DNA of 64,000 nt from Heliocidaris erythrogramma (taxonomy: Eukaryota; Echinodermata; Echinoidea; Camarodonta; Echinometridae), in NCBI GenBank assembly GCA_025617745.1, contig CM046853.1, positions 57,063,233-57,127,232 of the forward strand, read 5' to 3'. The translations under genes and the position numbers were made by a program. Numbering within the stretch: position 1 is the stretch's first letter; each line of letters opens with the position of its first letter. The notes below the pieces were generated by a model that saw only the letters and a program-made list of their open reading frames with translations, was not told where the DNA came from and searched no databases. Shown here piece by piece: positions 1,120-60,972 of the stretch.

Positions 1120-4100
1120 ATGAAGTACCTGAGTTTGTTACTGGTGGCAGCCTGCGTGGTCGGCTCGCTGTCGATGTCTTTCACCGATTACGATGATGAA
1201 TGGAACCAGTGGAAGAATGAACAAGGCAAGCAGTATCGAAATGGTCAGGAGGAGGCGTCTAGGAGACTGATATGGCAGGAAAACCTCGAGATCGTCGTCA
1301 AGCACAACCTCAAATACGACTTGGGCCACTTTTCCTATCAGCTTGGAATGAACCAATTCGCTGATCTGGTAAGTAAGAAAAGGGAGGACAGAAAAGTAGC
1401 GTATCAAGACTGAACAGTTGGGGATTCTGTGCCAGAAATATCCATGAAAAGCAAAGATAAAAAGTCAATAGACTTTTTTAGGAGCTTTTATGTAATCCAC
1501 TAAAATGATACCACCATTTTCAGGGCATTTGGGGGATAAAATTGCTGCTAGTTAAGAGGATTCGGAACTAACGTTATGGCAGGTTGGGTTTTGCAGGGCA
1601 GAGCCATCTATACATCTATAGATTTTTTTCAAGGTGCTTTCTGGTAATCCCCAAAATGTTAACCCCCTTTTCAGTGCATTTTTGGGGCTAAAATTGCTGC
1701 TGGTTAAAATGACACGGGCACGAAGAACGAAGCCTTTTGAACAAAATGATTAATTTCTCCAAACACACAATCACTTTTTACTCCAACTCTAACCATATAA
1801 TTCCACTGTGGGCGCAAAGGTCTTCGTTTCGCTAATAACTGCTTTCATGACTTCAACCATTTTTCCGTTCATTATTCCACCTCATTCGTACCCCCTTTTT
1901 TCAAAAGTTTATTTGTTTTATTCATTTTTCCCCATTTTATATCAAAATAACCATGAAACAATTGGAAAAAGACTAATTAACACATTGTGCCCTCATGGCC
2001 TTTGATGTCAGTCACTTTTCTTTGTGGGGGTGTAGAGGGTTTATCGCCACCTTCATGCCCTTCGGAAATTAAAAAAAAATAGTTCTGTCAAATGTACAAT
2101 ATCTGGGGATTAAAAAAAAAGGTTTTTGACCTCTGATATCGACTACTGTAAAGTCAAATCGGTTTTTTTCTTTTCTTTTTTCTTTTTTATCTGTATTTGG
2201 GTTAAAGGAGGGGGAATAGCGTACCCCCATACATGACAAATCACATATTTCTCTGTAGAGTAAACGTTATTAAGATATGCTCTCTCGTGATCTCTGCTAT
2301 CAGTGATTTTGGACCTTGATCTTAGATGATTACATCACGAGACTGAGGCAAATATTGGCAAAGCGCTCAAGTACCTCACGAGACCCACTTTATTACATCC
2401 ACTTGTTCGTGAACTTGTGGGTAGCTTGGAGTGAATCATGAACTTGTCTTGACAAATAAAGCCTTGATTGTTTGTAACTGCTATATTTTTTTTTTATAGA
2501 AGGACGTTATAAATGTAATAAATATTTTAGAATATATTTCAACAGGATAAAACAATCAGCAAAAGCTGTTTTACATTGTTGTCCTGTAAACAGGATAAAA
2601 CATATAAAAAGTACATTAGAAAAACAACTGATGAATTAACATAATAACAGGTAAACTAACATTGAATCAGTAGAAAATAACAAAATACATGTACTATAAT
2701 ATCAACAATTAGTAAAACAATGTGCATAAAATGGAGATGCTGTCAAGAGGGCGTGGCGGCATTAGCTCCTTATAACTATTGTCGTACCTTCTCTTAATTC
2801 ATTTCTGAAGATGATTAACATATTAATATTACTCTCATTGCACCAATTTCCAATCAACATGTTCAGTTGAAAAGTAAATTCGGGCATTGCTTTATCACGT
2901 TTTCTTCCATGGACGTTAGGAAAGCACAACCATAAGTAGCATTTCCCATGACGACCCATTCTAACTCGTTTCAATGGAACCCCCATCCCCATCCCATACC
3001 CCAACCCCCTTCCCAACCCCCAACCCCCCACACACATATCCATACTTACGCTTTTGTATTTCTAACATACCATGGAACAAGTCGATAAAGGTTATGGGTA
3101 GGAATGCAAAGTCATTGTTCTCAAATTTTGATAAGAATAATGATAAAAGTTATTCAAATCGTGATCAGTTGATAATTCTATGTACTCTACTTTGAAGGAA
3201 CTGTTGCATCAATAAACTGAAAAAGTGGTGAATAATCATTGTGATTCCATCATATTTTCACTTTATAGAGAAATGAAGAGTTCGTCGCCATGATGAATGG
3301 TTTCCAAGTCAATGCCACATCAAAGGTGGCTAGAGGCTCCACTTTCCTCCCTCCAAGCAACGTTGGTGAACTCCCCAAGAGTGTTGATTGGCGCACCAAG
3401 GGTTACGTAACTCCTGTTAAGAACCAGGTAATGTAAATATGAAAGCATAATTATATGTAATTCCCTAGATGACATGATCCATTGGCATATAAGGCATCCC
3501 ATTTTTTATATCAGTTCGTAATTAACATGATGATCATCAGATCAATGTTTCCATGATAGCAGAAGCAATCTTGGTTAAAAAAAAAGGGCGGCTTTTTATA
3601 CAGCGGGTTTGAGATAAGCTGTTAGATTTCACTCTATCAAGCTATTTGTTAAAATGTTCTCTCATTCTCAAAAGGGAATGAAATCTCTGGGGAGCGTTTC
3701 ATCAAGCGTTTTGTCAGTGCTTTTTACCGAAAATTTGCTCTCAGCCAATCAGATGCAAGGATTTCAGTAGCTTATAACAGTTGTCGGTAAAAATCACTGA
3801 CAAAACGCTTGATAAAACGCTTCCCTGAAGTCCTCTCATGTACTTCTTGGTCGATACTTTATTGAAAAGCCAACCAGCCAACATGTTAGTGCTTAGTAAT
3901 TCAGCTTCTTACTGGAATAGATACTTGAGCATGCATAACTGAACTGCAAACTAAGTCAATGACTAACTGACGAGACTTGAACTTAACTCATAACTCTAAC
4001 TAACTGATCATTATTGGTGGTGGTACGTGTTAATAATGGCAATCAGTCAAATTCGACTATTATCATCAATATAATTTAATTATGAGTTTTGTTTGATTTC

Positions 4101-7100
4101 TCTCATAACTTTTTCTACTATTTTTTTAAAATTATTATTATTATACAGTATCATGCCAGGTTACCGAATCCTGCCCGTTCCTAAACAGTTGTGCTTATAA
4201 AGAGTTGTAAACAATGAGTCATACACAAATGATGTAAACAAATTACTTTCTTAGAATGGGGTAGAAGGGTAGGAAGTAGAAGGGTAAGAGAAATGCCTAA
4301 CTCTATGAGTTAGAGTGTAACAATATGTTTCTGCATACAAAAGAAATTATTCAATTATCAGATTATGAAAAATATCACTCAATACCGATGCACCTTTTAC
4401 AATGATTTAAAGGCATTCAGTAACTTTGTGGAGGCTTGATAAAATCTGAGCTGTCTGGCCTTACATGCTATCAGTGTATGTAATATGGTGTAAAAATGAA
4501 GCCCATGCGGAAAAAGCACTTCAAAATCACCATGTGCTTCACAAAAGTAAACATATGCAAATGACCGGAAATACCAGACTCATTTTCCCCATTGACTCAG
4601 TGTTAGACTAAAGCGTAAGGCCATATGCTTTCGTAAATATGAGTATTCAGTCACAGATATCTTAATAATAGCATTATATATTTGAAAACCTTTCTATGCC
4701 TGGCTATTTATTTATCCTTCTGAACATCATTATACAAGACAGATATCAAAATTCAACAATTTGTTAAATCAAGCTTCCACAAAGTTACTGAATGCCTTTA
4801 AGAACTTAATGTAGCATTGGTGCAAAATCACAATATATTCATTACAACATTACGGTCATCTGAGGAAAATGAATTTCAGTGCTCACACTATTGATATACT
4901 AAAATACGCCATAGAACTATTATAAGAAAAACCTTTGTTTTATATGAACTGAAATAAAATTAATGAAACAGATTTATGGTACTAGTTAATAATAACATTG
5001 GACTCTAATTGAAGGCATCTGAGTGTAAATAAAGTATTCGAATACTTTAATTACACTCGACTCATAACGCAATTTCAAGGGGCAAATATTGTTTGTTTCC
5101 ACTTTCCAGCAACAATGTGGTTCATGCTGGGCGTTCAGTGCGACTGGATCTTTGGAAGGACAGCACTTCAAGAAGACTAGTAAGCTGGTCAGCTTGAGCG
5201 AACAGAACTTGGTAGATTGCTCCGGGAAGGAGGGCAATGAAGGATGCAACGGAGGTCTTATGGACCAAGCCTTCCAGTATGTCATAGATGCAGGAGGAAT
5301 TGATACGGAGGCGAGCTATCCCTACAAGGCAGTGGTGAGTGTTATCAATGGCAGCATTAATTTTGACCGCAACTTTAGATCATGCATTAGCATCATGCAT
5401 CAGCATTAGATCATGACATGATCAAAGCACATTGATTGAAACCCTGTTTCCCAAAGATATATGATTGGTCCGAATAAACATCATACCCCACTCAATCGAA
5501 CTGTCGCTGCACAATTTAATTTTGTGGGTTTTGTGAATATCATTGTGATCGATTCTGATCCATTGCAACTCTTTATAGGACGGGTGCCCTGTTCTGTGAG
5601 GAAAACTTCGTCTCGTTGTAACTAGAAGAGCTGGATATTCATTAAGTACATTTTCGTCTTCAAATGATTAAGCAAAATTAGTAGAAAGGTAGCATGATGT
5701 ATGCATAATTACTATAGCTAAGTGAGGAACTAATATTTTTAAAAGTCCAAGAGAGTTTATACCAACGCTTTTCTCGAAACCGAAAGTTTACAGCACTGAA
5801 ATAATCTTGAATTATTGTCAAGGCTTTGATACATTGACAATACCTTATTGAAAATAGGTTTATGAAATCGAAAGTTCTAAACTAAATTGATTGATCTAGT
5901 GGACATTTGGTCTCGATCCTCAGAGCTTTGATAACCAACCAATAAGGAAGTCAAGAGTATATCATGCACGCTTTCATCAGTTTTTATTGTCTCAATTTCA
6001 CCTCCATCTCCAGGATGGTACGTGCCACTTCAAGAAGGCTGACGTAGGAGCTACCGTCACTGGTTACACTGACGTCACCTCTGGCTCTGAAAAGGCACTG
6101 CAGAAGGCTGTGGCCCACGTTGGTCCAATCTCGGTCGCCATCGACGCCAGCCATATGTCCTTTCAGCTCTACACGTCTGGTAGGGATATCGCTAAAGCCT
6201 ACATAACTCTAACTGAGCTAAACAAGCTCTATCCATTGTGTCGCCTAAAAAAAAATGAAAATTTGGAATCGTACAATTTGGATGGACAAAACAACTCTGA
6301 ACGAGATGATGATCTTTAGGCCTATTGTGAAAACGAAATATTTACCTTTATTATTATTTTCTAACTAGGAAATTGCATTTCTAAGTGGAGACTCACTGAA
6401 ACTTTTTTTTTATCAGTTCAATTTGTGTCTTTTTAAAAATATTTTTTAATGATTTGTATTAGGTAAAATACAACACAATAACAAACATACATATACATGA
6501 ACAAAAACAATACAATAATACTCAGTTTGCTGTTTAACACAAATGAAAGAAAGCAATGAATTAAAAGAGGGTTTAACCTTTTGAAATTTACAGCAGTATA
6601 TCAAAAATCCAAAGAAGAAAAAAATCAATGCAGGAAGAATGTGGCGAAGAACGTTTGACTCCAAAGAGTTTTTCAAAATAGGAGAACGTTAATACCTCTT
6701 TCAGTTTGGAGCATAAGTATCTTTCCACAAACAACCAAACAGGAGTAACAATTTGACAGTATAACAAAAAATGCTGGATGGAGTTGTATCTCTATTACAC
6801 AATCTGCACAAGGGAGTGGCAGACCTCCCAATCTTAAACAAACAATTGTTTGTAGCTATTGCTTTGTGAAAAACTTTAAAATAAAATGATTGTTTCCACA
6901 GTACACTTGAAGTTACGCATATGAATACAAGACCACTCATCAACATCTGTATTACTATCGAATAACTTATTCCAAATATCATACTTCTTCTTAGTATCTT
7001 CGATACACACAAAAATAGGGTAAGCAAATTTAGGCATCTTTTTGGCCTGCAGTAATTCCTGTAAAACAACATCATAAGGGTCTCTGGCATCTAAGGACCA

Positions 7101-60553: not shown

Positions 60554-60588
60554 GAGATGGACTTTCAGAAGGCTGTGGCCCACGTTGG
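60554..60588 (+). pseudogene. Exon 4-like fragment inside intron 4 of copy 4
   Basis: Reads [12 protein letters not shown]; equivalent to 27653-27687 and 46075-46109. Confidence 0.65.
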
Positions 60589-60972
60589 GTGATAGCTACA
60601 CCAACAGTTTTTATTGTTATGTAAGAATGAACAACATTCAAGACCACAAAATATCACTTTGATTATACGACATCTTGTTTTTGAAGGTGTGTACGACGAG
60701 CCTGATTGTAGCTCTACCCAGTTGGACCACGGCGCTCTCGCAGTTATATGGAATCACCACTGACGGAACGGAGTACTGGATCGTCAAGAACAGGTCAGTG
60801 TGAGCATTTCATGAAATCTGAAAAAAATATGTAGGCCTATGTATTAGGGCAAATCCATGATTAGTAACATTACAGTTAGTAACGAAACACCTTGAAAAAT
60901 CATGAAATAATGGGGTTTTAACACCTTTTTCCTGATACCTCCTGTTCTTTAAACATCCGAAAATATAGTTTA

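What the first reader, a model, noticed from the sequence alone, without database searches (positions are those of the whole stretch)
1120..60793. Tandem array of at least six cathepsin L units in different states
Three open genes, one decayed gene, one exon 1 stump and one inferred deleted unit lie head to tail on one strand with identical exon phases (0,0,0,1,2). This is an active birth-and-death cluster in which breakpoints, insertions and decay can all be read against sister copies.
Basis: partly seen in the sequence, partly recalled or inferred. Interest (0 to 1): 0.7.

Follow-up and report, generated by a model that had tools for sequence, protein, structure and literature searches.

The report
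Tandem cathepsin L genes, one accelerating
Four copies of an animal cathepsin L protease gene lie head to tail, and comparing them shows how the array grew by one duplication, how one copy has been damaged, and how another is changing quickly around its substrate pocket; the kind of array is ordinary, the readable history is the value.

Summary
The array is real. Four cathepsin L units (A, B, C, D) lie head to tail on the + strand, sharing an exon plan with phases 0,0,0,1,2. A, B and C are open; D has lost its start codon and has a 2-bp frameshift. The exon 1 stump at 38062-38121 is best read as a breakpoint scar, not a decayed gene: segment 22568-38121 (B to stump) is collinear with 38119-51883 (C to D exon 1), and they meet at a junction with 3 bp of microhomology. 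One tandem duplication of about 14-15 kb would make both C and the stump. The "deleted unit" between A and B is not needed. Gene conversion is visible: D's 3' half is over twofold closer to B and C than its 5' half. The least expected result is asymmetry: with A as outgroup, B has 24 derived mature-domain residues and C none. Four of B's fall among seven S2-pocket residues; catalytic residues are intact. Acceleration of B is well supported, chiefly in exon 4; omega above 1 is not proven. Cathepsin L birth and death is well known. Organism, expression and read depth could not be checked.

The parts
1120..8694 (+). Unit A, open cathepsin L gene; exons 1120-1368, 3269-3427, 5110-5334, 6014-6179, 7833-7941, 8595-8694 (stop included)
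22568..38121 (+). Left copy of the duplicated segment: repeated (TE-like) piece, 5' flank, unit B, intergenic, 5' flank of stump, 60 bp of exon 1
   Evidence: collinear with 38119-51883: 22 of 32 HSPs in one chain, 85.4% over 7584 aligned bp; boundaries seen in the unrestricted self-comparison
23585..33380 (+). Unit B, open gene with accelerated mature domain; exons 23585-23833, 25203-25358, 25741-25965, 27211-27376, 27779-27887, 33281-33380
27211..27376 (+). Exon 4 of B: 19 B-unique bases of 166, 14 of 15 changed codons alter the amino acid
38062..38121 (+). Exon 1 stump S (first 60 bp of exon 1), ends at the duplication junction
38119..38121 (+). Junction with 3-bp microhomology: exon 1 fused to the repeated sequence that also lies at 22568 upstream of B
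   Evidence: homologies end and start here
39226..48094 (+). Unit C, open gene with the ancestral-like mature domain; exons 39226-39474, 41005-41160, 42320-42544, 45664-45829, 46201-46309, 47995-48094
51824..60793 (+). Unit D, damaged copy; exons 1-5 at 51824-52072, 56615-56770, 58461-58691, 60112-60277, 60687-60793; start codon lost, 2-bp deletion in exon 5
60794..62733 (+). Intron 5 of D with inserted DNA (60972-62362); homology to C intron 5 resumes at 62362 and ends at 62733; exon 6 not found up to 64000
60112..60972 (+). 3' half of D, more similar to B and C than its 5' half (likely conversion tract)
13423..13993 (+). Second copy of an intergenic segment (first copy from 10505) in the A-B gap, probable basis of the 'deleted unit' idea
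27648..27687 (+). 40-bp fragment of exon 4 inside intron 4 of B (also 46070-46109 in C, 60549-60588 in D; none found in A)

Best explanation
A tandem array of cathepsin L genes (signal-peptide-like start, propeptide and protease domain) evolving by birth and death. (1) Shown: A, B, C and D are head-to-tail copies with one exon plan. (2) Best inference: one non-homologous tandem duplication of about 14-15 kb ran from the repeated (TE-like) sequence upstream of a progenitor X to base 60 of exon 1 of the next unit. It gave B and C from X, and left the first 60 bp of exon 1 as stump S. (3) Inferred from divergence steps: conversion or unequal exchange later homogenised patches, chiefly the 3' half of D and the start of S and C. 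(4) Shown: D now cannot encode the normal protein. (5) Shown: after the B/C split the mature enzyme of C stayed ancestral-like while B changed at 24 residues, with the catalytic residues and cysteines kept and few propeptide changes. (6) Inferred: B is a working protease with altered substrate choice. Its changes include L69F, A135G, D162G and Q214R among the seven S2-subsite residues, plus the neighbouring 134-139 segment.
For: Exon plan, open frames and splice sites. Family: (C against PDB: procathepsin L 7w33 E 3e-113, human procathepsin L 1cs8 E 1e-110). Duplication: homologies start and stop at 38119-38121 in the unrestricted self-comparison and form one collinear chain; 3-bp microhomology; site patterns SD|BC 29 and 20, against SC|BD 10 and 2, SB|CD 3 and 1, in two adjoining stretches. 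Conversion: noncoding B-D divergence 237/1154 in the 5' half versus 47/572 in the 3' half (p 1.4e-11), C-D 267/1249 versus 50/540 (p 1.6e-10), B-C no difference (p 0.24). B asymmetry: mature residues 24 versus 0, against 40 versus 33 at (almost all noncoding) flank and intron sites (Fisher p 1e-5) and 11 versus 6 at silent codons (p 0.003). Mature domain omega on B 0.79 versus 0.22, p 0.0018. Exon 4: omega on B 2.74 versus 0.26, p 0.0012; 19/166 B-unique bases in exon 4 versus 8/355 in intron 4, p 5e-5. S2 residues: 4 of 7 changed, p 0.0045 among the 199 positions where A = C; the residue list is from a passage of PMC3014944.
Against: Omega above 1 is not significant for B (exon 4 p 0.14; mature domain p 0.55). 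Outside exon 4, B's omega equals background (0.32 and 0.32); in the mature domain without exon 4 it is 0.39 versus 0.20 (p 0.21) and B does not differ from C (p 0.32). B-C intron 3 blocks differ by about 13%, near exon 4's 15.7%, so the contrast with intron 4 depends on where conversion tracts end. S and D differ more than B and C in the flank (S-unique plus D-unique 70, B-unique plus C-unique 41), whereas one duplication predicts equality unless conversion intervened. The last roughly 250 bp before the ATG plus the 60 bp of exon 1 favour S with C (9 versus 4). Exon 4 was singled out after seeing the data, among several regions tested.
Confidence: 0.72

Rival explanations
1. The stump is a full fifth unit that later lost everything from base 60 of exon 1 to the repeated sequence upstream of C, after a two-unit block (X,Y) had been duplicated to B,S,C,D.
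For: Gives the same homology boundaries and the same S-D and B-C pairing.
Against: Needs two events (block duplication, then a deletion that happens to end in the repeated piece) where one suffices; no other exon between the stump and C's own exon 1 was hit.
Confidence: 0.22
2. B is not adapting but losing constraint: a young copy on its way to becoming a pseudogene.
For: Omega of B not above 1 in the mature domain (0.79); D shows that decay happens in this array.
Against: B has an open frame, intact splice sites, catalytic residues and cysteines; exons 1-2 omega 0.16 (p 0.005 against 1) and the gene without exon 4 omega 0.32 (p 0.007 against 1); S2 residues are over-represented among the changes. 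The prepro region alone is 0.21 but only p 0.06 against 1.
Confidence: 0.3
3. Exon 4 of B was replaced by conversion from an unseen diverged copy.
For: 14 of the 24 derived residues lie in one 166-bp exon; conversion is active here; B shares ATG at codon 27 of exon 4 with the exon 4 fragment in intron 4.
Against: Only 1 of 15 changed codons is silent; a diverged donor should bring silent changes too. Ten derived residues also lie in exons 2, 3, 5 and 6.
Confidence: 0.15
4. Assembly artefact: B and C (or the whole set) are haplotypes placed side by side.
For: No read depth available; B-C 3' ends are 95% alike over 628 bp.
Against: Mean B-C identity 85.4% over 7584 aligned bp, introns of different size, and a junction inside exon 1 that an allele join would not produce by itself.
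Confidence: 0.05

Closest known systems
Rodent placentally expressed cathepsin cluster (cathepsin L derived)
   Same: Lineage-specific cathepsin L copies (passage of PMC10380794); [quoted passage not shown]
   Different: In mammals and, by recall, larger; here a small array with a readable duplication junction and conversion steps
Fasciola secreted cathepsin L family
   Same: Duplicated cathepsin L, compared at S2 subsite residues, with sites under positive selection (passages of PMC3014944)
   Different: There many clades with protein data; here one copy with S2 changes and no expression data
Sea urchin sperm-histone protease (SpHp) and other S. purpuratus cathepsin L genes
   Same: Cathepsin L; five further S. 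purpuratus gene models could not be told apart as duplicates, alleles or assembly errors (PMC3489855: abstract and part 1 of Results)
   Different: The mature N-terminus quoted there for the Tetrapygus niger enzyme (TPGNLQIPDTVDWR) differs from this array's [15 protein letters not shown], so these are probably paralogs if the window is an urchin; no urchin sequence was available to compare
Carp ctsl.1B / ctsl.1B' tandem pair
   Same: Recent tandem cathepsin L duplicate (passages of PMC13095802)
   Different: No stump or conversion history in the passages read

Membership tests
Cathepsin L (papain family C1A with I29 propeptide) | Peptidase_C1 and Inhibitor_I29 domains in one chain | tested here: met
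   A, B and C above the Pfam cut-offs for both; D was not scanned
Cathepsin L (papain family C1A with I29 propeptide) | Catalytic Q19, C25, H163, N187 | tested here: met
   all four in A, B and C; D shows them only with its frameshift masked
Cathepsin L (papain family C1A with I29 propeptide) | Closest solved relatives are cathepsin L rather than K, S or B | tested here: met
   for C only: procathepsin L first, K and S lower, cathepsin B not among the 60 of 74 rows shown
Cathepsin L (papain family C1A with I29 propeptide) | S2 pocket of the cathepsin L type | tested here: inconclusive
   A and C share LMALDGQ, human LMAMDGA; B has FMGLGGR (4 of 7 changed relative to C)
Cathepsin L (papain family C1A with I29 propeptide) | Proteolytic activity at acid pH | not testable with these tools
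   needs protein
Birth-and-death tandem gene family | Head-to-tail copies with shared exon plan | tested here: met
Birth-and-death tandem gene family | Both intact and disabled copies | tested here: met
   (A, B, C open; D start loss and frameshift)
Birth-and-death tandem gene family | Copy number differs between related species | not testable with these tools
   no related genome could be searched; the genome search 'own' unanswered

The most novel reading that the evidence does not exclude
Unit B is a newly specialised cathepsin L. Within one duplication its sister C kept the ancestral enzyme while selection remodelled B's S2/S1' cleft, including Gly for Asp162 next to the catalytic His and Arg at the base of S2 (residue 214). 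This would give it a different P2 preference (possibly acidic residues) and pH optimum.
Probability: 0.35. Interest if true: 0.5.

Novelty: new member of a known kind. Interest (0 to 1): 0.36.

Why it matters
Lineage-specific cathepsin L expansions are common (passage of PMC10380794). What this one offers is that a duplication breakpoint, an ancestral-like sister, an accelerated copy and a damaged copy all sit within 64 kb. It gives a clean pair (B and C) for testing whether change at a protease pocket after duplication is adaptive. If the species is a sea urchin, it also bears on the unresolved extra cathepsin L gene models in S. purpuratus (PMC3489855).

Tried and rejected
Stump as independent decayed gene: rejected as the simplest reading, because its boundary coincides with the B-C homology start and its flank pairs with D. 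Deleted sixth unit: no exon query hits the A-B gap better than E 0.19, and informative sites on the repeated segment are 2:2:1; neither excluded nor needed. D exon 6 'lost': not claimed, since intron 5 homology stops at 62733 and an insert could push exon 6 past the window end. Positive selection as proven: rejected. Neutral N:S simulation on exon 4 gave P 0.076, not significant. An exon 4 duplicate as an alternative exon in intron 4: only 40 bp, not an exon. Retroelement identity of eight other ORFs: no Pfam match above cut-off, one weak zinc-ribbon match below it. Rfam at gathering scores: nothing. Paper searches on sea urchin or echinoderm cathepsin L (18, 5, 4 and 5 papers) and on tandem, selected or placental cathepsin L (5, 0 and 0 papers) listed no paper that, by title and start of abstract, describes such an array; I used 9 of 10 searches. 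Structure prediction was not run: spliced proteins are not letter-for-letter in the DNA. In the prepro region the separate omega for C ran to 33, an unstable estimate. The wider-cleft enrichment (9 of 19 positions differ between B and C) is not used, since that residue list was recalled after seeing the alignment.
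Full report
WHAT IS THERE. Translated searches with the window's own exon peptides find four sets of cathepsin L exons on the + strand, plus a 20-codon piece at 38062-38121. Splice sites put six coding exons in A, B and C with intron phases 0,0,0,1,2, every intron GT-AG, and open frames of 335, 334 and 334 aa. All three match Pfam Inhibitor_I29 and Peptidase_C1 above the curated cut-offs. C's best solved relative is procathepsin L (7w33, E 3e-113; human procathepsin L 1cs8, E 1e-110), ahead of cathepsins K and S (A, B and D were not searched).

UNIT D. D has exons 1-5 with intact splice sites, but ATG is ATC. Exon 5 has lost two bases just after the segment with the catalytic His, exon 3 carries six extra bases at the residues corresponding to 69-70 of the S2 pocket, and Trp26 is Ser. 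Intron 5 of D can be followed against C to 62733; no exon 6 appears between there and 64000. In C exon 6 lies about 750 bp beyond the matching point and in A about 190 bp, so it is missing or displaced. An in-frame ATG six codons upstream of the lost start exists. However, the conserved ...ctgcag|ac before ATG looks like a splice acceptor of a 5' UTR intron, so that ATG may not be in the mRNA (inference).

THE STUMP IS A BREAKPOINT SCAR. In the unrestricted self-comparison the match between B's and C's upstream parts begins at 22568 = 38119, and the matches of the stump's flank to D and to C end at 38121 (= 51883 in D). Chaining all matches between 22141-38121 and 38119-52200 gives one collinear series of 22 of 32 matches, 85.4% identical over 7584 aligned bases (the two stretches were cut at the junction by me). 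At the junction exon 1 is fused to a sequence that also stands upstream of B and belongs to a repeat (part of 22141-22633 recurs inverted at 15961-16444); three bases (TCG) are shared by both sides. Informative sites pair S with D and B with C: 29 against 10 and 3 over the 720 bp ending with the stump, and 20 against 2 and 1 in the stretch before that. The simplest account is one tandem duplication, from inside the repeated sequence upstream of a progenitor gene to base 60 of exon 1 of its downstream neighbour. That produced B, stump, C in one step. A two-unit duplication followed by a deletion gives the same boundaries and cannot be excluded; it costs one more event. Two observations do not fit an undisturbed single event. 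The S-D distance exceeds B-C (70 against 41 unique sites), and in the last roughly 250 bp before the ATG plus the 60 bp of exon 1 S resembles C (SC|BD 9, SD|BC 4). Conversion is the likely cause of both.

THE 'DELETED UNIT'. In the A-B gap a 0.6-kb intergenic segment occurs twice (from 10505 and from 13421), with a junction at 13422/13423 between sequence that elsewhere lies about 900 bp upstream of an exon 1 and sequence of the 3' intergenic part. This can be a lost unit or a local duplication. No exon query hits the gap better than E 0.19; the two pieces at that value are a weak exon 6-like stretch listed under noticed items. Only five informative sites exist, split 2:2:1. I do not count it as a unit.

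CONVERSION. Over nine alignable noncoding blocks, B-D divergence is 237/1154 in the 5' half and 47/572 in the 3' half (p 1.4e-11), C-D 267/1249 and 50/540 (p 1.6e-10). B-C is 120/1273 and 42/547 (p 0.24). So D's exon 4-intron 5 part was shared with B/C much more recently than the rest. The blocks are those that BLAST could align, so fast-evolving parts are under-represented.

UNIT B IS CHANGING, UNIT C IS NOT. With A as outgroup, 24 mature-domain residues are derived in B and none in C; 14 of the 24 lie in exon 4, 10 in exons 2, 3, 5 and 6. At flank and intron sites (the flank set includes the 60 bp of exon 1) the same two lineages show 40 and 33 unique changes (Fisher p 1e-5), and at silent codons 11 and 6 (p 0.003). 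A codon model written for four sequences gives, for the mature domain, omega 0.79 on the B branch against 0.22 elsewhere (p 0.0018), and B different from C (p 0.010). Most of it is exon 4: omega 2.74 against 0.26 (p 0.0012). Outside exon 4 B's omega is 0.32, the same as background, and for the mature domain without exon 4 it is 0.39 against 0.20 (p 0.21), with B not different from C (p 0.32). In exon 4, 19 of 166 bases are unique to B, against 8 of 355 in the adjoining intron 4 (p 5e-5), and 14 of 15 changed codons alter the residue. None of these shows omega above 1 at the 5% level (p 0.14 for exon 4, 0.55 for the mature domain). The simulated neutral N:S split for exon 4 is also not exceeded (P 0.076), and B-C intron 3 blocks are about as diverged (13%) as exon 4 (15.7%). 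Exon 4 was picked after the fact among six region sets (three more). The safe statement is strong one-sided acceleration with constraint kept elsewhere; adaptation is plausible but unproven.

WHERE B CHANGED. Mapped on human cathepsin L, B's derived residues include 4 of the 7 S2-subsite residues listed in PMC3014944 in papain numbering (L69F, A135G, D162G, Q214R; p 0.0045 among 199 positions where A = C). They also include neighbours 71, 134, 136, 138 and 139, while Q19, C25, H163 and N187 and the cysteines stay. The conversion of papain to cathepsin L numbering is mine. A passage of PMC11089505 says a P2-type phenyl ring sits against Leu69 and Ala135, that residue 69 is Phe in cathepsins V and S, and that Asp162 is only partly conserved. 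That residue 214 is the floor of S2 and governs charge preference in papain-like enzymes is recalled knowledge.

RELATION TO WHAT IS KNOWN. Passages of PMC10380794 state that cathepsin L has undergone numerous, mostly species-specific duplications, including rodent placental cathepsins. PMC3489855 (abstract and part 1 of Results) reports in S. purpuratus the SpHp gene, three closely related genes and five models that could not be sorted into duplicates, alleles or errors. The array is therefore a new member of a known kind. Searches for a description of such an echinoderm array listed none by title or start of abstract; the library is partial.

VERDICT. Real, largely as described, ordinary in kind. 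The B/C asymmetry is the part worth a follow-up.

Noticed in passing
27648-27687, 46070-46109, 60549-60588: A 40-bp fragment of exon 4 sits in intron 4 of B, C and D, none found in A (35 of 40 bases match exon 4 of B in B and D, 33 in C; alignment scores 40-55 against exon 4 of A, B or C, largest shuffled score 26). It reads [17 protein letters not shown], mixing A-like and B-like residues, and may preserve an older exon 4 state.
   Followed up: partly
10951-12022, 41441-41824, 42684-44098: An about 180-bp tandem repeat family occurs in the A-B gap and in introns 2 and 3 of C, with no other match in the window.
   Followed up: partly
24277-24537, 49129-49372, 50074-50210, 47338-47949, 8164-8272: Long inverted (foldback) repeats scattered through introns and intergenic parts; the first three are related to each other.
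   Followed up: no
10180-10215 (also 35534-35569): A 12-residue exon 6-like stretch (MVRNTGTNCGLA, MVRNTGTKCGLA) in the intergenic parts after A and B; 3 and 1 of 200 shuffles score as high, so it may be chance or an old relic; the C-D gap does not show it.
   Followed up: partly
28276-29145 and 14674-15186: Open frames of 289 and 170 aa in B intron 5 and the A-B gap without Pfam match; by recall they resemble C-terminal parts of non-LTR retrotransposon proteins.
   Followed up: partly
1105 (A) against 23570, 39211, 51809: The 5' flank of A (1119 bp in the window) matches those of the other units only for about 15 bp before the ATG at the threshold, while B, C, D and S share several hundred bp; A may be driven by a different promoter, or its 5' UTR exon may lie outside the window.
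   Followed up: no
33234-33847 and 47937-48561: The last exon and 3' flank of B and C are 95% identical, well above the chain average of 85%, possibly another conversion patch.
   Followed up: partly
9934-10500 and 35292-35860: An intergenic block after A is 90% identical to one after B although the A-B blocks around intron 1/exon 2 and intron 4/exon 5 are 73%, a further sign of exchange.
   Followed up: no
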